A stretch of 64,000 nt of DNA from an uncultured Prevotellaceae bacterium (GTDB lineage: Bacteria; Bacteroidota; Bacteroidia; Bacteroidales; Muribaculaceae): the NCBI GenBank assembly GCA_900317835.1, contig ONIL01000002.1:62001-126000 (forward strand). Direction: 5' to 3'. Numbering within the stretch: position 1 is the first letter of the stretch; every line of letters starts with the position of its first letter. Position numbers and translations under genes: made by a program. Shown piece by piece: positions 30,899 to 47,519 of this stretch. Under the pieces are notes generated by a model that did no database searches, was not told the origin of the DNA, and saw nothing but the letters and a program-made list of their open reading frames with translations.

Positions 30899-32068
30899 CT
30901 AAAGAAAAATTGCCATATACATTGGCAGCATTATCAAATCCCGTTCTTTCCGAATGTCCTTTGAATGAAGGAGGTACCGTTGAAGGATGCGGGCCGAGAA
31001 CTTCTTCTGGAATTCATCAATGGAAACATGAAGATTGGATGTCGATGACTTGACTTCTATCGGGCAGATTTTAGCTTTACGGGACAACAGGAAGTCTATC
31101 TCGTAGTTATGTTTGCCCGATGGTGTCGGCCACGTATGGTAATACAACTTATTCCCAGTGGCTGTCAGAATCTGTGACACCACGTTCTCATATACGTAGC
31201 CCACATCAGCCTTCAGTTTATCGCTCAACAATTTTTGGTAAATGACATTCTCTGTAAATTTATCGTCCCAGAAAGCGAGAGTGACAAATAGTCCTGTATC
31301 TCCGCAAAACAATTTAAACTGGTCGCGGTTGATGTGTGATGCCAATCCTGCACTTGGGTCGTTAGCGTGATAAGCTATATTGACGGTCATGGAATCTTTG
31401 AGGATATTTATCAGACCTCTTAAACGATCCACTTTTCCTCCCTCAATCACGCTACTCACCTGATAGCGAGATGCGTTACTGCTTAGTTGAGCAGGAATGG
31501 CGTGAAACAGGTCGGAGGTTTGACCTGATGGCAAAAGGGGAATAGTTTGGTCGTCTCCCAATGCCCAACGAAACTCTTCATAGTCCATGGGGTACATATC
31601 AAGGCGCGTTTCCTCACTGGGAATGAGAATGTTTTTCTGTTGCTCGGAGTTGCCAGCTGACTTCCTTTTACGCTTGATGCTCAACAGAGAGCCGGTTTCG
31701 ATGTAATCGTAGCGTCCATCGGCCACAAGTGTTTTAATGGCTTGCCGGGCTAATGGCTGCTTCTGTATTTCATCAAAGATGATGACTGACTTGCGTGGCT
31801 TCAGACTCGTCCGATAGTTAAGTTGCAGTTGCGTGAAGATGTAGTCCAGATTGGAGACATCTTCAAACAAACGGTGTATTGTTTGCGTTGCTGTTGAGAA
31901 GTCAACTAATATGTAGCTCTCGTATTCATTACGGGCAAATTGCTCGGCAACAGTGGACTTGCCGACACGCCTTGCACCCCTGATAAGAAGTGCTGTCGTT
32001 CCGTGCTGATTTTTCTTCCAACTCAGCATTTGCCCATATATTTTGCGTCTGAAAATTCTTTCTGCCAT
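30899..32068 (-). CDS. DUF4143-type AAA ATPase, apparently internally shortened
   Basis: About 389 residues from MAERIF. The Walker A site LLIRGARRVGKSTVAEQ is near residue 32, the Walker B VIIFDEIQKQP near 87, and the sensor-like SLLSIKRK near 125. The C-terminal DUF4143 domain has the nuclease-like NYEIDFLLSRK and ICPIEVKSS motifs. In relatives I recall, roughly 60 residues separate the RWALGDD segment from IPAQLSSNASRYQVSSV; here they are about 20 apart, in frame, suggesting a deletion. Start chosen because a promoter -7 box lies at 32092-32099, inside the longer possible frame. Function of the family is unknown. Confidence 0.78.
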   Translation of the reverse strand: MAERIFRRKIYGQMLSWKKNQHGTTALLIRGARRVGKSTVAEQFARNEYESYILVDFSTATQTIHRLFEDVSNLDYIFTQLQLNYRTSLKPRKSVIIFDEIQKQPLARQAIKTLVADGRYDYIETGSLLSIKRKRKSAGNSEQQKNILIPSEETRLDMYPMDYEEFRWALGDDQTIPLLPSGQTSDLFHAIPAQLSSNASRYQVSSVIEGGKVDRLRGLINILKDSMTVNIAYHANDPSAGLASHINRDQFKLFCGDTGLFVTLAFWDDKFTENVIYQKLLSDKLKADVGYVYENVVSQILTATGNKLYYHTWPTPSGKHNYEIDFLLSRKAKICPIEVKSSTSNLHVSIDEFQKKFSARILQRYLLHSKDIRKERDLIMLPMYMAIFL

Positions 32069-32091
32069 TTTCATCTTTGTATTACCGGGTG

Positions 32092-32122
32092 CAAATGTAA
32101 TCATAAAATCCCAAATATCAAA
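32092..32122 (-). promoter_or_regulatory. Promoter for the DUF4143 ATPase
   Basis: Minus-strand -7 TACATTTG (32092-32099), 19-nt spacer, -33 TTTG (32119-32122). It rules out the upstream start at 32104. Confidence 0.65.
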
Positions 32123-33793: not shown

Positions 33794-33881
33794 TATCCGC
33801 GACACAAAGGTACAACATTAAGTCATTTTCCTGCCTTCCAGTGTCTACTTTTTGAGGTGCAACACGCAGAAGTTACAGTTA

Positions 33882-33985
33882 ATTGATTATCAGATATTTA
33901 TATATTAAACGGTACAACTATGGTAGAGTTTTGAAGTACAACTTTCAAAGCCTTCACATTTAATACTTTTGACATAGTTTAACGC
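33882..33985. repeat. 104-bp att-adjacent repeat, copy 2
   Basis: Direct repeat of 30716-30819. As in copy 1, GCAGAA (33866-33871) stands exactly 10 bp before it, marking a probable second att core interrupted on its left by the IS3 element. The right arm of the hairpin seen in copy 1 is lost here. Confidence 0.75.
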
Positions 33986-34083
33986 CTGGTAGATTCAACT
34001 GAATCGACATTGGGTGAATCAGTTGTAGTTCACAAATAGCATAATATAATAGAAAAAGCGGTTGAGTCATAATCATTCTAATA

Positions 34084-34188
34084 TTAATCTTTCAGGCAAG
34101 CTATCGGAATAACCATTACACCATCGGCTCGCATATAAGCATATTGTCCAACTGCCGTCAAAACCATCTTGAAAGATGGTTTTTTCAT
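34084..34188 (-). CDS. 34-residue ORF, probable 3' remnant of a larger gene
   Basis: It reads MKKPSFKMVLTAVGQY then a tail with RADGVMVIPIACLKD and stop. The tail looks like the C-terminal strand of a larger protein; its distance to the 104-bp repeat (99 bp) is similar to that between the DUF4143 ATPase stop and its own repeat (80 bp), so it may be the leftover end of a second such gene. A GAGAAAAC stretch precedes the ATG. A short inverted repeat AACCATCT/AGATGGTT with a T-run (34162-34185) lies inside it and could instead be a plus-strand terminator. Confidence 0.35.
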   Translation of the reverse strand: MKKPSFKMVLTAVGQYAYMRADGVMVIPIACLKD

Positions 34189-34285
34189 CTTTGTTTTCTC
34201 AATCTTGCCTTCAATTATTTATTCAATAAAATTATGGCGGTAATCAAAAACATAGCCTCAAATCAATAGTTTTTCTCAATTTCTT

Positions 34286-34315
34286 CTTGTTTGTCGGACG
34301 TATTCAGTATATTTG
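34286..34315 (+). promoter_or_regulatory. Promoter for the SatD-like/DUF3307/GHKL operon
   Basis: -7 TATATTTG (34308-34315) with CTTG 18 nt upstream. The start codon is 156 bp further on, leaving a leader of about 150 nt. Confidence 0.5.
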
Positions 34316-34419
34316 CAAATCAAAATATCAAGTTAATCCACTGCAATAAGGCGATGAATAGCCCTGTTAGCAACATTGGCTCAAAGCCTAATTACAAGCT
34401 CTGGAACTTGTATTGTCAG

Positions 34420-34443
34420 AAAACAAGTGCTAGAACTTGTTTT
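34420..34443 (+). promoter_or_regulatory. Leader hairpin, possible attenuator
   Basis: Perfect 9-bp inverted repeat AAAACAAGT/ACTTGTTTT with a 6-nt loop, ending in a short U-run, inside the leader of the operon. A partial copy of its right arm (GGAACTTGT, 34403-34411) lies just upstream and could form an alternative pairing. Confidence 0.45.
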
Positions 34444-34470
34444 AACATTTGAAATAATACTTATAAGAAT

Positions 34471-35121
34471 ATGTACGCAACAATATCAGCAGATGTAGTT
34501 TCTTCTACTTCATTATCAATAGAGTCCATGATAGGGCTTAACGAGCATATCAAGAAGTGCCTAGCTCTTCTTGAAGATAGATATATGGGCTTCTGGGGAC
34601 GTATTGTAAGAGGTGACACAATAGAATGCATTCTGAAATCGCCAGAGGATGCCCTTGAGGCTGCACTTGTACTGAAAACATGGGTAAAATCATTTGTACC
34701 AAAGAGCGATGCTAAATATAGTTTTAGCAAATATGGTCTTAGGATTGCAATTGGCTTAGGTGATATGAAGACCGTAAGTCGAGATCGCGATATGATGGAT
34801 GGTGATGCCATCTATCGATCTGGAAGAGCTCTAGATAGCCTTGTGGGTAGATCGAAGTATTCGTTTACTATCTCCATGGCTGATGGAAAGCAAGAACAAA
34901 TTTTGAGAATCATGTTTTCGCTAATCAATGACTTGGTTAATAAAACTACAGCTCGTAGATGTCGCACACTTTATGAGAAAATCCTCTATAAGGATGCGAA
35001 TATGATTGCAAAGAACATGGGTATTACCCCGTCGGGGGTTAATCAGAATCTTAATGCGCTCTGTTGGAGTTCTATTGAACAGGTAATAGAGTATTATAAA
35101 GAAATCGTGAGAGAATTATGA
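34471..35121 (+). CDS. SatD-like protein: nucleotidyl-cyclase-fold domain plus HTH
   Basis: 216 residues. Residues 2-125 follow the class III cyclase layout: ISADVVSST (Asp8, first metal ligand), a GRIVRGDTIECIL hairpin (Asp49, second metal ligand), SPEDALEAALVLK, LRIAIGLGDM near 90-99 and GDAIYRSGRALDSL near 111-124. The Asn that normally helps catalysis in that last helix is Tyr here, so activity is uncertain. Residues 163-216 look like a helix-turn-helix (IAKNMGITPSGVNQNLNAL). SatD-family proteins often precede DUF3307 genes, as here with a 4-bp overlap. A sensor or regulator role is inference. AT-rich codon use differs from the core genes. Confidence 0.7.
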   Translation: MYATISADVVSSTSLSIESMIGLNEHIKKCLALLEDRYMGFWGRIVRGDTIECILKSPEDALEAALVLKTWVKSFVPKSDAKYSFSKYGLRIAIGLGDMKTVSRDRDMMDGDAIYRSGRALDSLVGRSKYSFTISMADGKQEQILRIMFSLINDLVNKTTARRCRTLYEKILYKDANMIAKNMGITPSGVNQNLNALCWSSIEQVIEYYKEIVREL

Positions 35122-35888
35122 TAGATATGATAATAAACTTATTGGTGGCTCATTTTGTAGGTGACTTTTATTTGCAAAATGGCTGCATGTGTAGGAGCAA
35201 AGTGGAGAATAATTGGAGTGGCTGGGGAATGATTACCCATGCTATAATTATTGGAATTCTTTCCTGTTTTGCTGTTATGGATTGTGCTGCTTGGTGGATA
35301 ATTCTTTTGCTGATAATATCTCATTTTGCAATCGACAGCCTGAAATCTTATTTTCAGGTTAAATACAATATTGTAAATATTGCTGAACTTAATGTAACTG
35401 ATGGGAAAAATGCTAAATATGATTTACCGTTATTTGTAGTTGACCAGTTGCTTCATATAGGTATTATAGTTAGCATTGTGAACCTTTGGTTCCTGGTTGG
35501 TAATGATTGGAGTCAGTTTAACTGGGTGGCATCTTTATACTTGCAGCATCCATTATGGATAAAGACGATATTAGCGATGGCTTTGGTTTTGAAACCTGCC
35601 AATGTTCTGGTATTATTAGTTCTTAAAGCTTGTAAGGTAAAGGTCGCTGAAGAAGATCACGGAAACTTTCATTCAGGCGCGCTGATAGGAAATATAGAGC
35701 GTGTATTAATTCTCTTGTTTGTTATTCTGTCTCAATACGAAGCAATAGGTTTCTTGCTCACAGCAAAGTCTATTTTGCGATTTAGCCAAGCACACTCAGA
35801 GAGTGAGAAGTCTGAGTATGTGTTGGCTGGTTCTTTGGTATCGTTGGCAATAGCTTTTTTTATAGGTATAATTGTTGTGAAACTTTAA
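35118..35888 (+). CDS. DUF3307 family membrane protein
   Basis: 256 residues, six or so membrane helices. The DUF3307 signature is clear at the start: LLVAHFVGDFYLQNGCMCRSKVENN, then ITHAIIIGIL, LIISHFAIDSLKSYFQVKYN and FVVDQLLHIGIIV, with conserved Asp and His residues in the membrane (VGDFYLQ, ISHFAIDS, DQLLHI). The C-terminal half (about 150-256) includes HSGALIGNIERVLILLFVILSQYEAIGFLLTAKSILRF. Function unknown. It overlaps the SatD-like gene by 4 bp and precedes the GHKL-nuclease by 12 bp, so all three are one operon. Confidence 0.85.
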   Translation: MIDMIINLLVAHFVGDFYLQNGCMCRSKVENNWSGWGMITHAIIIGILSCFAVMDCAAWWIILLLIISHFAIDSLKSYFQVKYNIVNIAELNVTDGKNAKYDLPLFVVDQLLHIGIIVSIVNLWFLVGNDWSQFNWVASLYLQHPLWIKTILAMALVLKPANVLVLLVLKACKVKVAEEDHGNFHSGALIGNIERVLILLFVILSQYEAIGFLLTAKSILRFSQAHSESEKSEYVLAGSLVSLAIAFFIGIIVVKL

Positions 35889-35900
35889 AAGAGGAAATCG

Positions 35901-38087
35901 ATGATAAAATTTGATGATGTAACAAAGTTCGAAAAGTACAATGACTTGAAATGGTCGGGCATCTTGAAGAGCATTAAAAAATCTGCTAATATTCTGCAAC
36001 CACTCTTTGAGGGTTTCACAAATAGTCTAGAGTCGATCAAGATGCGGATAAAAAGAGGGGATGATTTTTCTCCTTATATCAATATTATACTTAGTTATAA
36101 TTCATCGACTGATGGTGATAGTTTAGATTTGTCGAGCTTAACCATCGAAGACAATGGTATAGGATTTGATGAAGATAACTACAAGCGACTTGTTGTCTTT
36201 AAAGATGATACCAAAGGTTATAATAATAGAGGCTCTGGCCGAATTCAAATGATTCATGCTTTTCAGTTATCCCAATATGATAGTATCTATAAGGAAGGAG
36301 ACATATTGATGAAGCGAGGATTCGTTATATCCGGAACAAGGCCATTCATTGATAAGAATACGATTATCTATAAAACAGAAGAGCCAACTGCGCTAGAAGG
36401 TGACGAGGAGATTAAGACTACCCTCAAGATGTATTTACCCACTAATGAACATGATGCTAAAGAGTACGCCGAATTAGGCGCAGACGACATAAAGAAAAAA
36501 CTCATAAATCACTATTTACTTACTTTTTGTAATGGAAAGGATTCATTACCTTTGATAAGCATTATTTATAAGATTGGTGGGGAAGTAAAAGATCGTGATA
36601 CAATTCTAGTTGATGACATTCCTGATCCAACTTGCACTGATGTTTTGATTTCAGTGCCTCTTTGTAAGATATCTGATGACATGAAAAGAATCCAAGAGGT
36701 AGAGGATACGCATATACCAATCAAGATACTTCCCTATAAGATTAATGCAGATATGCTCCAAACTAGTGAGATAAAGATTACTAGTAAAGGAGAGATTTGC
36801 GATAACACCAAGATAAAATTAACATGTATTGATCCAGATGCAGAATTAGATAATTGCAGATATTTATTCCTGCTTTCAAGTGATTATTTTGATGATTTAG
36901 AAGGTGATGAGCGTGGCAATATTGAGATATTAGATAAGACAGAATTCAAAAAAGTAGCTAAAGCTCAAGGATATATTGAGCATCAGATTGTGCTTAATGA
37001 TATCCAAGATGGAGTGAATGCAAAAGCAAGCGAGATCTATTCTGAAATATTAACTCAGAATGAAGAGTTTCAGGAAAGGCTTGAGCAGTTGAAGAAAGAT
37101 TATCTGCTTTCCGAAGATGCATTATTAGAGGTATCATTGAGTGATTCCATTGATGATGTGTTCAAAAAAGCATATACCTATGATGCAAAGGTAATGGCGA
37201 AACAAAGTGCTGCATACGAGAAGAGCGTACAGAAGTTGAATGAGTTGAATCCGACAACTGATGATTATCAAGATCAACTCTCTAGTATTGTTGATAGTTT
37301 AGTCGAATCATTGCCCGTTCAGAATCGCGCAACATTGTCTAAATATGTTGCGCGACGCAAGATGGTAATCGAACTAATGGGTAAAATACTGGATCGTCTT
37401 GCAGATTGTCAAGATGATGATAAAAGAAATCAGGACGAAAAATTGCTTCACAATCTCATATTTAAGCAGCATAGTGATAATCCTCTTTCAAGCGACATGT
37501 GGCTTATAAATGAAGAATATATGTATTTTACGGGTTCTTCAGAAAGCAAACTATCGCAATTGAAATTGGATGGTGAACGTATCTTCAAAGATATCATTGA
37601 CGAGGAGGAAAAGCGCTATCTAAATTCGTTAGGAGAGAAGAGAGCAGATATGCGAACTGATGTATTACTATTTCCTGCTGAGGGTAAATGTGTAATTATA
37701 GAGTTTAAAAATCCAAAGGTAAATGTCGCTGACTGCATTAACCAGATAACAAAGTATGCCTATTTCCTCAGGAACTTCACAAAGCCTCAATTCAAGTTTA
37801 TTACTTTCTATGGTTACCTTATAGGTGAAAGCGTGGAAAAACGAGATGTGCGAGCAGTTGATGGTGATTTTCAAACTGCACCTAATCTTGATTATCTTTT
37901 TAGGCCAAAGAAAACGATACCGGATGATAGTGGAGCAGGCGTTGATGGTACTTTGTATATGGAGGTTCTTAAATTTTCTGTGCTACGAGAGCGTGCTTCA
38001 TTAAGAAACAAAGCATTCATCGATCGTCTCATGGAAGATGCTTTACCAGAAAACAGAGCAAGTGGGGAAGAGAATGAATGTTCGTAA
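35901..38087 (+). CDS. GHKL ATPase fused to a PD-(D/E)XK nuclease
   Basis: 728 residues. The N-terminal Bergerat-fold ATPase domain (about 25-220) has the N box LFEGFTNSLES (Glu37, Asn41), the G1 box IEDNGIGFD (Asp84, Gly86, Gly88) and a Gly-rich G2 box NNRGSGRIQ (108-115). A middle region (about 375-580) is helical and acidic. The C-terminal part carries a nuclease core: RTDVLLF (Asp587), VIIEFKNP (Glu601, Lys603) and QITKY (Gln615, Tyr619), as in RecB/Cas4-type enzymes; the last part, VLKFSVLRERASLRNKAFI, recalls Shedu/DUF4263 ends. MORC- and Hsp90-type GHKL proteins act as ATP-gated clamps, so an ATP-gated DNA or RNA cutting effector is a reasonable inference. Confidence 0.75.
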   Translation: MIKFDDVTKFEKYNDLKWSGILKSIKKSANILQPLFEGFTNSLESIKMRIKRGDDFSPYINIILSYNSSTDGDSLDLSSLTIEDNGIGFDEDNYKRLVVFKDDTKGYNNRGSGRIQMIHAFQLSQYDSIYKEGDILMKRGFVISGTRPFIDKNTIIYKTEEPTALEGDEEIKTTLKMYLPTNEHDAKEYAELGADDIKKKLINHYLLTFCNGKDSLPLISIIYKIGGEVKDRDTILVDDIPDPTCTDVLISVPLCKISDDMKRIQEVEDTHIPIKILPYKINADMLQTSEIKITSKGEICDNTKIKLTCIDPDAELDNCRYLFLLSSDYFDDLEGDERGNIEILDKTEFKKVAKAQGYIEHQIVLNDIQDGVNAKASEIYSEILTQNEEFQERLEQLKKDYLLSEDALLEVSLSDSIDDVFKKAYTYDAKVMAKQSAAYEKSVQKLNELNPTTDDYQDQLSSIVDSLVESLPVQNRATLSKYVARRKMVIELMGKILDRLADCQDDDKRNQDEKLLHNLIFKQHSDNPLSSDMWLINEEYMYFTGSSESKLSQLKLDGERIFKDIIDEEEKRYLNSLGEKRADMRTDVLLFPAEGKCVIIEFKNPKVNVADCINQITKYAYFLRNFTKPQFKFITFYGYLIGESVEKRDVRAVDGDFQTAPNLDYLFRPKKTIPDDSGAGVDGTLYMEVLKFSVLRERASLRNKAFIDRLMEDALPENRASGEENECS

Positions 38088-38136
38088 ATAATCAGAGACG
38101 TTTACAATACTTGACGACATTCGTGTTGACTGTATA

Positions 38137-38357
38137 ATGCGCATCAATAGTGTCCACTAAAGAATCGCATATTATTTTATAAGTATCTGATATTCATTGC
38201 CTTATAGATGATTTTAAGAGACGACGATTTGAAATAGAGAAGTCATTAAGAATCAAATGATTAAGAAAAAAACATATTGATTTTTAGGCCTTTAATAAAA
38301 ACTATTTCATGTATCACCATTGTTTGAAAGTTTAAGTGGACAGCAATGAATGCGCAT
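38137..38357. mobile_element. MITE-like or IS-remnant element
   Basis: Inverted ends TGTCCACT (38151) / AGTGGACA (ends 38342), each flanked outside by the palindrome ATGCGCAT (38137-38144 and 38350-38357). No ORF inside; the 192-bp interior is AT-rich. The terminal motif resembles the ends of the IS3 element at 32251-33851 (innermost copy AAAGTGGACAC), so that IS may be able to move it. Confidence 0.5.
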
Positions 38358-41215: not shown

Positions 41216-41857
41216 TTACGATTTCTTTCTAAATCGATCAAGGAAGCGCATCAGAAGATTCTCTTTAATGACAATAATGTCTCCTGCAGCACGTTCGTCG
41301 TCTGGATGGACATCATGGTATGTTTGAGCGAATTGACCAAAATTGAAGATATTGATTGTTATATCCTTGATTGAGAAAATCGTGTAAATCAATAGAAAGA
41401 CCAGCCAAAACAAAGTAAAAGCCTTAATACAAATTTTCAAGTTATAGTTAAGTGTACTAAGGTGGCTAACGAAATTCATGCCAACCTGGACAAATACACA
41501 AAATAGCGTAGTGATAAAAGATGCTCCAAGTACGATGGCAAATGTCGAGTTCAATTTTTGAAATAAAGACGGCTTTTCTCCATCCATAATGGGCTGCATG
41601 ACCTTAGAACCTGACATCCCCATCATCAAAGCATAACCAGCAAGAGTAAAACCAAGAACTGTGGGTGCTATGGATAAGGATATTGTTGTCACAGTATCGA
41701 TAAGCACAGTCGGGGACACAGTTGATGACATTGAGCATACAACCACTATTAGTGCGACAATTAGTGGCCATGCAACTGAGCGGCGCAAGTTCTGTATAGT
41801 ATAGCATTTAAACACTGCGCCCCAACCAGGACTTGTAATTCTCTTACCCATTTTCAC
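41216..41857 (-). CDS. Four-helix membrane protein paired with a DUF4747-like gene
   Basis: 213 residues with about four membrane helices: 29-46, 58-80, 107-130 and 145-170. The N-terminus is basic; the cytoplasmic tail holds FGQFAQTYHDVHPDDERAAGDI and a final basic helix (ENLLMRFLDRFRKKS). No family recognised. It overlaps the upstream DUF4747-like gene by 14 bp, so expression is coupled. Such sensor-plus-membrane-effector pairs are common in abortive infection; that role is inference. Confidence 0.7.
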   Translation of the reverse strand: MKMGKRITSPGWGAVFKCYTIQNLRRSVAWPLIVALIVVVCSMSSTVSPTVLIDTVTTISLSIAPTVLGFTLAGYALMMGMSGSKVMQPIMDGEKPSLFQKLNSTFAIVLGASFITTLFCVFVQVGMNFVSHLSTLNYNLKICIKAFTLFWLVFLLIYTIFSIKDITINIFNFGQFAQTYHDVHPDDERAAGDIIVIKENLLMRFLDRFRKKS

Positions 41858-42683
41858 CTCTTGCTAAACGTCTGATAAAATCAAAAACAGCATAGGTTGG
41901 CGAATTGCCGTAGTATGGGATGGTTTTGACCATTGGATGCTCGGAGGTATCAATCCTTTCAGGCACATCATCATCGTAGATTGTGGCTATGGTATGACCA
42001 TTGGAACCACTCAACCTAACATAAGCTTGGAGCATTTCACTCTGACGTATGTCAATGGGATTTCGCTTCGTTCCAGTTACAACTGTTTTAGAGGACCTTG
42101 CATTACTTTGGCGCATTTGGTTATCAATAGCCTCGGCCCAATCATCATGATTGTCATTGTTCGTATATGAGATATTGACCTCTAACCTTGACATAGCAGG
42201 TGCGTTAAGAATGCGTTCCAACACACCTCGGTCTTTCTCTAATGTGACTTCATAGGAGTCTCCATCTCGATATTGCTCAATTGCCTTCTTCAAGAACTTC
42301 AGAACCTGTTTCTCGGGGAACGGTTCAATAATGGCTATACGATGAAACTCAGGCACAAATATATAAGGCCAAATCTTAACACTAAGTCCTTTATTCGGGT
42401 CTGTTGCGGATGGCACTATCTCATTCGTATTTCTATCAATCGCATCCGAATCTGGTTTGATGTATATCGCATTGGAAAAGTCGCCATAAAAAACCCCGTT
42501 TTCATCGGGACCATATAGTCTACGGATATGAGTAGCACGGTCTCCGAATGTCGAAACTAAAACACCATCATCAAATATGTGACGAAACAATTCAATATAG
42601 TTGTCTCTTATCTGATCCGTTTCGGGATATAAGACAATATTGAATACTTTTACCCTGCAGTATTGCTGTCGTTCTGTTTCCAT
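41844..42683 (-). CDS. DUF4747-like protein
   Basis: 279 residues, soluble. The layout matches DUF4747: VKVFNIVLYP at the N-terminus, a YIELFRHIF helix, GDRATHIRRLYGPDENGVFYGDFSNAIYI, FVPEFHRIAIIEPFPEKQVLKFLKKAIEQY, and VTLEKDRGVLERILNAPAMSRLEVNISYTNND with the Glu-rich EAIDNQMRQ helix after it. Family function is unknown; members occur in accessory regions. Named from pattern memory, so only moderately sure. Confidence 0.6.
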   Translation of the reverse strand: METERQQYCRVKVFNIVLYPETDQIRDNYIELFRHIFDDGVLVSTFGDRATHIRRLYGPDENGVFYGDFSNAIYIKPDSDAIDRNTNEIVPSATDPNKGLSVKIWPYIFVPEFHRIAIIEPFPEKQVLKFLKKAIEQYRDGDSYEVTLEKDRGVLERILNAPAMSRLEVNISYTNNDNHDDWAEAIDNQMRQSNARSSKTVVTGTKRNPIDIRQSEMLQAYVRLSGSNGHTIATIYDDDVPERIDTSEHPMVKTIPYYGNSPTYAVFDFIRRLARGENG

Positions 42684-44735: not shown

Positions 44736-46034
44736 ATGATAACGAGCTTTACAGCAGAGAATTTCCGTTCGATAGACGGGGAGATCAGATTGTCGTTTGA
44801 AGCTGATACAGGCATCAAGGACATGGACAACAGGGGTTATACCACTGTAGCGAATAGTAGCGTGTTGAACGCAAAGGCCTTTTATGGAGCTAATTCAAGT
44901 GGCAAATCGAACGTCTTCAAGGCCGTTGGCATGATGCGGAGCATGATTATCCATTCGGTGAGGCTAAACGACAATGAGTCACTCCCATATGATCCCTTTC
45001 TCCTTTCGGATAAAGAAGTAAGACCAACGCGGTTTGAAATGTCGTTTGTAGACGGTACGGACAAGTATACATACGGATTCAGCTATACTTCACGTCGGAT
45101 AGAAGAGGAGTGGCTGATAGCGAAATTCCCCAAGCGTTCGCTGAAGACACTGTTAAGGCGAACCCCCGACAAGACAGAGATTGATATACAAAATTATCAG
45201 GAGGGGTTAGCTATTAAAGAAGGCACTATCCCACTGAATAATAATAGGCTGTTCATTTCTCTGGCAGCACAGTTGGGCGGTGAAATATCAAAAAGAGTGA
45301 TTGAATGGTTCAGAACAAAGCCAAATGTAATTTCCGGCCTGCGAGATAATGACTTTTCCCTCTACACGAAGGAAATGCTACATACTAGAGCGGACTATAA
45401 AGACGATATATTGGACTTTATCGGGGGCATGGATGTGGGATTCCGTGAAGTGACAACTGAGCAAGAGTATATTGATGAGAAAATGCTACCCAAGGGACTG
45501 CCCTCCGAGATTGTGGCATCGCTGAAGGAACATCCCCCTATTGTTGCATATGCCAAACATAGTAAGATAAATGAAGAGGGTGATGTTGTAGGGATGGTGG
45601 ATTTTGATATCGATGAAAGAGAATCGGACGGAACCAGGAAACTGTTTAATCTAGCTGGTCCAATTGTTGACACTCTTCGGCAGGGGAAATCGCTGTTCGT
45701 AGACGAGTTAGATGCACAACTTCATCCACTGCTGTCGCGTCGCATCTTGCAGCTTTTCAACTGTGCTGAGACGAATCCTCACGGTGCGCAGCTGATATTC
45801 ACAACGCACGATACTAATATGTTATCGAAGAAATTGCTGAGACGAGATCAGGTGATATTTGTAGAGAAAACAGCAAAAACGCATTATTCTACGAAACTGA
45901 CACCGATGATGAATATCACATTAGACAATGGGGCAAAACCCAGAACAGACAGCAACTATGAGAAGAATTATCTAGAAGGGAAGTATGGGGCCATCCCTTA
46001 CTTTGAAGATGAATTTAAAGGTTGTAACGAATAG
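44736..46034 (+). CDS. AbiLi/RloA-type AAA ATPase (AAA15 family)
   Basis: 432 residues. The N-terminus MITSFTAENFRSIDGEIRLSFEA is followed by Walker A FYGANSSGKSNVFKA near residue 48, a middle region with DIDERESDGTRKLFNLAGPIVDTL (signature-like), Walker B SLFVDELDAQLHP near 323, and TTHDTNML. The C-terminus EKNYLEGKYGAIPYF is the usual end of the ATPase partner of RloB in abortive-infection AbiL-type systems. The partner normally follows directly; here the next 514 bp hold no RloB-like frame, so this is an orphan. Confidence 0.8.
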   Translation: MITSFTAENFRSIDGEIRLSFEADTGIKDMDNRGYTTVANSSVLNAKAFYGANSSGKSNVFKAVGMMRSMIIHSVRLNDNESLPYDPFLLSDKEVRPTRFEMSFVDGTDKYTYGFSYTSRRIEEEWLIAKFPKRSLKTLLRRTPDKTEIDIQNYQEGLAIKEGTIPLNNNRLFISLAAQLGGEISKRVIEWFRTKPNVISGLRDNDFSLYTKEMLHTRADYKDDILDFIGGMDVGFREVTTEQEYIDEKMLPKGLPSEIVASLKEHPPIVAYAKHSKINEEGDVVGMVDFDIDERESDGTRKLFNLAGPIVDTLRQGKSLFVDELDAQLHPLLSRRILQLFNCAETNPHGAQLIFTTHDTNMLSKKLLRRDQVIFVEKTAKTHYSTKLTPMMNITLDNGAKPRTDSNYEKNYLEGKYGAIPYFEDEFKGCNE

Positions 46035-46547: not shown

Positions 46548-47519
46548 TCAGAGACGAAAATATCTATCTATGAAGTTTTCCAGTACATTCGTTAATTTTT
46601 CATCGCTGTTTGACGTCTGGCAAATGTATAAAGAAAGGATGTCAACAACAATGGATTGGCTTAGCGACTTTGGATTGTATTTCCATACCTCTAATGAATA
46701 TGGATGGTTCCCTTTTTCATCGAAAACCGTGATCTCAGATAATTGGCTTTTGCTGATCGCGTAGCGTGTTCCTTCATTTGTATTAGCCGAATTGGTATAA
46801 TGGCGTACAGCATCCATTCCAGCCAGTAATGCACCATCTGGCCTTTCATCAGAATATACTACTTTCTCTATCGGAGAACTTAGATATGCAATGCAGGACT
46901 CCCACAGGCTTCTTCCTGATTTCATCATCTGCACTTTCTTTTCCTTACCTCTTGACACTATGACCAGTTCTTTCGATTTGAGCCATCTTACAGCCCTGTT
47001 AGCTGTCGAATAGGAAACGTCAAACGCTTCCATGATTTCATGGACACTCATCCATAACGGTCCGAAGAGGATGCTGTGCAGTATCAGGCACTGTGCTAAC
47101 GCCGGAATTTCTTCTTTTATATCTTTGCCTGTCTGAGGAAGTCTTCTGAGATCCATCAGCAGGGAGGGGACGAACATTTGTTTCCCGACAATGATGAAGT
47201 TCACGCGCTGGTGGATGAGACGCTGGATGTTGTATGATGGGATGTTTCTGATAACAATGATGCTGATGATTCCACACTTATCTGACATGATCTGCATATG
47301 TCGCTGTATCTGTGCCGGGGTTAGTGTTTTCACTTCCTTCGGGTAACACAGCATCACGGGAATGCCGAACAGTGATGATATGTAGCACTTGTACTGCTCA
47401 ATCAGCACTGCCGGCATTCTCTTTCGAAGCTCGTCGTCAACTACCCATATTTTAATTGTCTGGTCGATCAAAGAATAGATATACGACTGGGTTTGTTCTA
47501 TAAGGGCTTTATCTTCCAT
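46548..47519 (-). CDS. Winged-helix protein of unknown family
   Basis: 323 residues. The first 150 residues have a mixed alpha/beta pattern (IKIWVVDDELRKRMPAVLIEQYKCYISSLFGIPVMLCYP; VNFIIVGKQMFVPSLLMDLR). A winged helix follows at about 165-205 (MSVHEIMEAFDVSYSTANRAVRWLKSKELVIVSRGKEK), then a C-terminal domain with ERPDGALLAGMDAVRHYTNSANTNEGTRYAISKS, reminiscent of AbiEi-like regulators. No toxin partner is adjacent. A promoter of the island type precedes it. Confidence 0.65.
   Translation of the reverse strand: MEDKALIEQTQSYIYSLIDQTIKIWVVDDELRKRMPAVLIEQYKCYISSLFGIPVMLCYPKEVKTLTPAQIQRHMQIMSDKCGIISIIVIRNIPSYNIQRLIHQRVNFIIVGKQMFVPSLLMDLRRLPQTGKDIKEEIPALAQCLILHSILFGPLWMSVHEIMEAFDVSYSTANRAVRWLKSKELVIVSRGKEKKVQMMKSGRSLWESCIAYLSSPIEKVVYSDERPDGALLAGMDAVRHYTNSANTNEGTRYAISKSQLSEITVFDEKGNHPYSLEVWKYNPKSLSQSIVVDILSLYICQTSNSDEKLTNVLENFIDRYFRL

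What the first reader, a model, noticed from the sequence alone, without database searches (positions are those of the whole stretch)
34471..38087. Operon of cyclase-fold/HTH protein, DUF3307 membrane protein and GHKL ATPase-nuclease
Three tightly coupled genes in a mobile island: a SatD-like protein with both metal Asp of a class III cyclase fold and an HTH, a polytopic DUF3307 protein, and a 728-residue fusion of a Bergerat ATPase (Glu37/Asn41, DNGIG) with a PD-(D/E)XK nuclease (Asp587, Glu601-x-Lys603, QxxxY). This could be a defence system in which nucleotide sensing or signalling gates an ATP-clamped nuclease. I do not recognise the set as a named system.
Basis: partly seen in the sequence, partly recalled or inferred. 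Interest (0 to 1): 0.8.

Follow-up and report, generated by a model that had tools for sequence, protein, structure and literature searches.

The report
Two neighbouring modules, not one system
The three genes are real, but they look like two separate units that sit side by side in one lineage: a widespread uncharacterised two-gene pair, and an ATP-clamp DNA-cutting protein whose published relative defends bacteria against phages.

Summary
In detail: three intact, closely spaced + strand genes at 34471-38087 with the motifs described, all under purifying selection. The 728-aa protein has the published paraMORC3 architecture (GHKL ATPase plus C-terminal PD-(D/E)XK nuclease). VcSduA, reported with that layout, blocks phage and needs both its ATPase Glu and nuclease Lys. 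The three-gene set is not a conserved system: all three occur together only in the window and two close MAG relatives. None of 15 other nuclease loci with about 5 kb or more upstream has SatD or DUF3307; neighbours there vary (McrBC/LlaJI-like, type IIG, Mrr-like, reverse transcriptase, or none recognised; one further locus lies between hsdS and hsdR). SatD-DUF3307 is its own near-obligate pair: 28 of 29 SatD loci have DUF3307 downstream, 24 of 24 full-length DUF3307 loci have SatD upstream, 5 of 5 short DUF3307 loci do not. The window's own genome has a second pair without the nuclease. Best reading: two adjacent modules. The nuclease is a restriction-type defence enzyme of a known kind. The pair is the open part; I propose that SatD restrains a membrane effector, antitoxin-like, which is inference.

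The parts
34471..35121 (+). SatD-like protein, 216 aa: class III cyclase/GGDEF-type fold with D8 and D49, plus C-terminal HTH
35118..35888 (+). full-length DUF3307 polytopic membrane protein, 256 aa; invariant H12, D16, Q20, F106, Q110, H113, E194, R195, K217, R221, Y234 in 56 of 56 aligned rows
35901..38087 (+). GHKL ATPase - PD-(D/E)XK nuclease, 728 aa (paraMORC3 architecture)
33863..38144 (.). block shared as a unit with L006 (99.8%) and L007 (94.5%)

Best explanation
Two independent modules lie next to each other. (a) The 728-aa protein is a paraMORC3-type GHKL ATPase-nuclease. Most likely it dimerises on ATP, clamps DNA with its GHKL plus middle domains and lets its PD-(D/E)XK domain cut foreign or replicating DNA, as a restriction-like defence. 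The domain layout, motif conservation and partner-swapping context are shown here; the clamp and DNA cutting are inferred from GHKL relatives and from the published VcSduA mutants. (b) SatD-DUF3307 is a translationally coupled pair that travels by itself. Most likely SatD, an HTH protein with a metal-binding cyclase-like sensor domain, represses and/or restrains the full-length DUF3307 membrane protein, which acts as an effector. The obligate pairing is shown; the regulator/antitoxin role is inference. In this one lineage the two modules have become neighbours, possibly co-transcribed.
For: Trio only in the window and in L006 and L007 (nuclease 99.9% and 96% identical). 15 of 15 other wide-flank nuclease loci lack SatD and DUF3307 at E<=0.01; 4 further Bacteroidales genomes with a nuclease match gave no SatD or DUF3307 hit in their 1.5-kb flanks (L134 is partial, its upstream side barely visible). 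Nuclease neighbours are other restriction-like genes: McrB plus LlaJI-like (L008), McrB plus DUF2357/PDDEXK_7 (L009), reverse transcriptase (L011), Eco57I-type (L065), Mrr/nSTAND3 (L068), and hsdS/hsdR-like on either side (L132). SatD-DUF3307: 28 of 29 and 24 of 24; 5 of 5 short DUF3307 loci without SatD. Second pair in the same genome at G000:C61, no nuclease. G012 and G238 carry both modules far apart. Pair also in Fusobacterium (SatD PF16264 3.2e-14) and on Sphingomonas, Vibrio, Salinivibrio, Enterobacter and Segatella plasmids, beside annotated Pycsar, TIR and AAA ATPase/helicase genes in two of these five (L085, L088). In S. pyogenes satD was the only accessory gene (178/249 genomes) in the top essentiality class (PMC11323703, passages), a pattern expected of an antitoxin.
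Against: In this lineage the three genes are tightly spaced, conserved as a block between two genome backgrounds, and all under purifying selection, which allows a local functional link. No toxicity, cyclase, ATPase or nuclease activity was tested. The S. pyogenes satD paper says nothing in the passages seen about a neighbouring DUF3307 gene or an antitoxin role, and satD is tied there to acid tolerance. Most of the ten Bacteroidota pairs with wide flanks sit among housekeeping-looking genes, not defence genes (my reading of the sequences).
Confidence: 0.78

Rival explanations
1. A genuine three-gene defence system of this lineage: SatD senses or makes a nucleotide, DUF3307 transduces at the membrane, and the GHKL nuclease executes.
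For: Close spacing (4-nt overlap, 12-nt gap), shared block in window, L006 and L007, and dN/dS of 0.15-0.17 for all three genes.
Against: Only one close lineage shows it; 15 of 15 other nuclease loci and 10 of 10 wide-flank SatD loci lack the partner module. The pair's prevalence (SatD in 62 of 296 genomes) far exceeds the nuclease's (4 of 395; 9 of 395 with a profile; 5 of 393).
Confidence: 0.1
2. SatD-DUF3307 is a Pycsar-like pair: SatD makes a cyclic nucleotide that opens a DUF3307 membrane effector.
For: Cyclase fold with both metal Asp invariant; Pycsar cyclases 7r65 and 8jsz appear among the PDB matches (ranks 44 and 49); the effector-like partner is membrane-bound; one pair lies beside an annotated Pycsar system (L085).
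Against: At the column I assign to the transition-state Asn no row of 28 has Asn (three have Asn one column later), and the following Arg is kept in 17 of 28; the column assignment is mine, by eye. SatD carries an HTH; a profile comparison with the L085 cyclase found nothing. PADLOC gave no hit for either protein.
Confidence: 0.12
3. SatD-DUF3307 is a stress (acid/membrane) regulation pair rather than a defence or toxin-antitoxin unit.
For: The family name comes from acid tolerance in S. mutans (stated in PMC11323703 and PMC10326533, passages); chromosomal copies among housekeeping-looking genes.
Against: Patchy distribution (62 of 296 genomes), carriage on plasmids, and an essential-yet-accessory satD fit a self-maintaining unit better.
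Confidence: 0.3

Closest known systems
paraMORC3 family (Iyer, Abhiman and Aravind 2008, PMC2292703; parts 1-2 of 4 and passages read)
   Same: N-terminal GHKL plus S5-type domain, C-terminal restriction-endonuclease-fold domain with E-D-ExK; proteobacteria and bacteroidetes; sporadic, some standalone, others with restriction genes.
   Different: Some relatives here lie next to McrBC/LlaJI-like genes or a reverse transcriptase, which the parts I read do not mention ('mcrb' 0 occurrences). No direct comparison with a named paraMORC3 sequence was possible.
VcSduA, GHKL-type Shedu (PMC12137116, section 12 and passages read)
   Same: GHKL ATPase followed by PD-(D/E)XK nuclease; catalytic Glu and Lys at E27/K557 there, E37/K603 here, with E25-E33/K552-K565 in six shorter relatives of 667-684 aa in my alignment.
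   Different: P0003 and the family rows do not match PF14082 (SduA_C); they match HSDR_N weakly instead.
SatD family (PF16264) and DUF3307 (PF11750)
   Same: SatD-like fold and HTH; DUF3307 domain; same gene order as in Bacteroidota, Fusobacterium and Pseudomonadota.
   Different: P0001 is divergent: no PF16264 hit of its own, linked through family members (15 of 28 rows hit).
Pycsar (cyclase plus effector)
   Same: Cyclase-fold protein next to a membrane protein.
   Different: HTH-bearing, probably altered active site; DUF3307 is not a Pycsar effector I know of (recalled).

Membership tests
paraMORC3 | N-terminal GHKL domain with the ATP-binding motifs | tested here: met
   E37, N41, D84, G86, G88, G111, G113, T173 in 14 of 14 rows; GHKL folds top the PDB matches
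paraMORC3 | S5-type middle domain | tested here: met
paraMORC3 | C-terminal restriction-endonuclease-fold domain with E-D-ExK | tested here: met
   E513, D587, E601-x-K603 in 14 of 14 rows; HSDR_N matches in 7 of 14 rows, best 4.5e-05, P0003 1.3 bits under the cut-off. The aligned position of D587 is unsure in the distant rows
paraMORC3 | sequence relation to a published family member | not testable with these tools
   the figure with the sequences is not held
Shedu (SduA) | PF14082 SduA_C (DUF4263) nuclease domain | tested here: not met
   no PF14082 match at E<=1 in P0003 or in the 14 rows of A2 or 9 of A1; own genome 0
Shedu (SduA) | remote homology of the nuclease domains | tested here: inconclusive
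   hhalign against 13 PF14082 loci: all 14 rows 96.4%, 140 columns; seven distant rows 93.9%; but the seven rows nearest P0003 only 18.8%, 43 columns; unrelated SatD control 0.1%
SatD family | PF16264 match | tested here: inconclusive
   P0001 itself: none at E<=1 or 0.01; 15 of 28 aligned relatives match, best 1e-10
DUF3307 | PF11750 over cut-off | tested here: met
   74.4 bits against a cut-off of 23
Pycsar | cyclase fold with two metal Asp | tested here: met
Pycsar | catalytic transition-state residues | tested here: inconclusive
   no Asn at the assigned column in 28 rows, Arg in 17 of 28; column assigned by eye
toxin-antitoxin module | obligate adjacent pair | tested here: met
   28 of 29 and 24 of 24; the two sets share some genomes
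toxin-antitoxin module | one product toxic, the other neutralising | not testable with these tools
   only indirect: essential yet accessory satD in S. pyogenes (PMC11323703 passages)

The most novel reading that the evidence does not exclude
SatD-DUF3307 is an unrecognised two-gene toxin-antitoxin or abortive-infection unit, widespread across phyla, in which a cyclase-fold HTH protein that has kept its metal site senses a nucleotide or phage-induced change and releases an intramembrane His/Asp-rich enzyme or channel. It would explain why satD is the single essential accessory gene reported in S. pyogenes. In the window's lineage it has been stacked with a paraMORC3 nuclease as a back-up layer.
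Probability: 0.3. Interest if true: 0.65.

Novelty: new member of a known kind. Interest (0 to 1): 0.4.

Why it matters
For the nuclease it adds a Bacteroidales member to a family with one tested representative known to me from the papers read (VcSduA) and shows how freely that module changes neighbours. For SatD-DUF3307 it replaces a guess about a three-gene signalling system by a testable two-gene unit with strict pairing, conserved polar residues in the membrane protein and a regulator with a metal-binding cyclase-like site. Searches of the held library for DUF3307 (one paper, a phage genome), SatD with DUF3307 (none), 'SatD family' with defense (one annotation paper) and SatD with toxin and antitoxin (two, neither on this as far as their listings show) found no description of the pair as a system; most subscription papers are not held.

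Tried and rejected
A single signal-gated three-gene system: rejected as the main reading because neither module follows the other outside one lineage.

Filing P0003 as Shedu: not done, since PF14082 was tested and not met; only a remote profile link for the wider family. In the fold searches of the whole P0003 model the nuclease part was barely tested (listed rows span 7-394) and no Shedu entry is in the 50 rows listed by each; this says nothing either way. The model has mean pLDDT 77.0, pTM 0.51 and weak confidence around 400-600.

PADLOC gave nothing for the three proteins; over the nine rows of A1 only single-member matches, best 0.0066 to PDC-S41. NCBIfam gave nothing. PDB by sequence gave nothing useful for P0003, P0001 or A1. 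Viral scan with P0003 alone found no relative; with A1 seven viral contigs with nuclease relatives, none with SatD or DUF3307, three of them with under 1.6 kb upstream. Phage records: no match for P0003 or P0001. E. coli genomes by DNA: none. Pycsar cyclase profile comparison: nothing. Streptococcal SatD neighbours could not be fetched; that satE might be DUF3307 is a recollection I could not test (one search found no paper with both names on the sat operon in its listing).

Rows left out: A3 holds 25 of the 29 SatD loci L015-L043 (L017, L032, L040 and L043 left out) plus P0001, L007 and L044. One search gave flanking DNA for 30 of 64 places (L014 is the window's own), for 30 of 39 places. The SatD profile was trained partly on loci it then found.

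Full report
Observation. GC drops to 0.36, against 0.455-0.567 in the 2-kb steps outside 34-48 kb. Between the window and the L007 relative dN/dS is 0.154, 0.171 and 0.163, so all three are kept as proteins.

The nuclease. P0003 has GHKL motif residues and a C-terminal E513-D587-E601-x-K603 motif, present in 14 of 14 aligned relatives down to about 19-22% identity, with Q615 in 13 of 14. The position of D587 in the distant rows is unsure. The model matches SMCHD1, GyrB, MutL and Hsp90/TRAP1 over about residues 14-390. Pfam gives HSDR_N at 4.5e-05, 1.3 bits below cut-off, and HATPase_c only at 0.24 for P0003 itself; HATPase_c matches 11 of 14 family rows, best 4.7e-07. This is the architecture described in 2008 as paraMORC3 (PMC2292703, parts 1-2 and passages): GHKL, S5 and a restriction-fold domain with E-D-ExK, in proteobacteria and bacteroidetes, often standalone. 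VcSduA of the same layout was shown in 2025 to protect against T1-like phages, and E27A or K557A abolished this (PMC12137116, section 12). P0003 does not match the Shedu domain model PF14082. A profile comparison links the family's nuclease domain to PF14082 proteins (96.4%, 140 columns; SatD control 0.1%), but the subset closest to P0003 gives only 18.8%. So I call it paraMORC3-type, working like VcSduA, and leave Shedu membership open.

What the nuclease lives with. Relatives are sparse: 4 of 395 Bacteroidota genomes by P0003, 9 of 395 class genomes by profile, 5 of 393 order genomes at E 1e-20, each count including the window's own genome; 8 plasmid records. SatD and DUF3307 sit upstream only in the window, L006 (same block at 99.8%) and L007 (94.5%). 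Fifteen other loci with 4.9-10 kb upstream show neither gene at E 0.01. Their neighbours include AAA_5 plus RE_LlaJI (L008), AAA_5 plus DUF2357/PDDEXK_7 (L009), RVT_1 (L011), Eco57I (L065), Mrr_cat/nSTAND3 (L068); others have no recognised partner among the ORFs I read by eye. Of four more Bacteroidales genomes, L132 has the nuclease between Methylase_S and ResIII/HSDR_N genes; none of the four showed SatD or DUF3307 in the short flanks held, and L134 shows little of its upstream side.

The pair. SatD-like proteins occur in 62 of 296 Bacteroidota genomes. Of the 29 places outside the window for which flanking DNA was given, 28 have DUF3307 directly downstream (L026 is the exception). From the other side, DUF3307 was found in 38 of 198 class genomes. 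Of 29 places newly given as loci, 24 are full-length and all have SatD upstream; 5 are 122-133 aa and have none. The two sets share genomes and so are not independent. Ten pairs with wider flanks have no nuclease. The window's own genome carries a second pair at C61 without it. Genomes G012 and G238 hold both modules at distant places. The pair reaches Fusobacterium, where SatD passes the Pfam cut-off (53.5 against 29 bits) with DUF3307 next to it, and Sphingomonas, Vibrio, Salinivibrio, Enterobacter and Segatella plasmids. In two of those five the neighbourhood holds annotated Pycsar, TIR or AAA ATPase/helicase genes (L085, L088).

How the pair may work. SatD has a cyclase-type fold with D8 and D49 invariant in 28 rows, but at the column I assign to the transition-state Asn there is none in 28 rows (three have Asn one column on), and the Arg is kept in 17. 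That suggests metal/nucleotide binding rather than ordinary cyclase chemistry; the column assignment is by eye. Full-length DUF3307 has invariant H12, D16, Q20, Q110, H113, E194, R195, K217 and R221 in 56 of 56 rows, with H41, H69, D73, K76, D109 and E233 in at least 53, which looks like a membrane-embedded active site or channel. Full-length DUF3307 was never seen without SatD in these samples, while one SatD stood alone. In S. pyogenes satD was the single accessory gene (178 of 249 genomes) in the top essentiality class (PMC11323703, passages). Together this fits a restrainer and its effector. It is inference: no toxicity has been tested, the neighbouring gene in S. pyogenes was not seen, and acid tolerance is the only role named in the passages read.

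Context. The block lies beside an integrase-bearing stretch that ends at mnmE. In L007 the block alone is next to mnmE, so the trio is not tied to that element.

Verdict. The three-gene system is not supported. The most interesting remainder is the SatD-DUF3307 pair.

Noticed in passing
window 38136-38349: About 205-bp MITE-like insertion with 12-bp end repeats of the type TGTCCACT and a duplicated AATGCGCAT; L006 shows the empty site.
   Followed up: partly
window 44736-46034 (+): AAA ATPase with PADLOC AbiLi match, E 3e-87.
   Followed up: no
window 30899-32104 (-): AAA_14/DUF4143 ATPase with PADLOC PDC-S01 match, E 1e-71.
   Followed up: no
window 41844-42683 (-) and 41216-41857 (-): DUF4747 protein (E 9.1e-24) overlapping a probable membrane protein gene; not in PADLOC.
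   Followed up: no
window 46548-47519 (-): GntR-like winged-HTH protein with a weak CARF3 match (2.7e-04) in PADLOC.
   Followed up: no
L011 10094-11734: Reverse transcriptase gene (RVT_1, E 1.6e-13) overlapping the end of a GHKL-nuclease gene on a Pseudoalteromonas plasmid; possibly a paired defence unit.
   Followed up: partly
L128 123-1883: A different 587-aa protein with a GHKL-like N-terminus (PADLOC REase_II 6e-14) found through PF14082: a second GHKL-Shedu-like architecture in Bacteroidota.
   Followed up: partly
L113-L117: Short DUF3307 proteins of 122-133 aa, without the C-terminal half and without SatD: a separate branch.
   Followed up: partly
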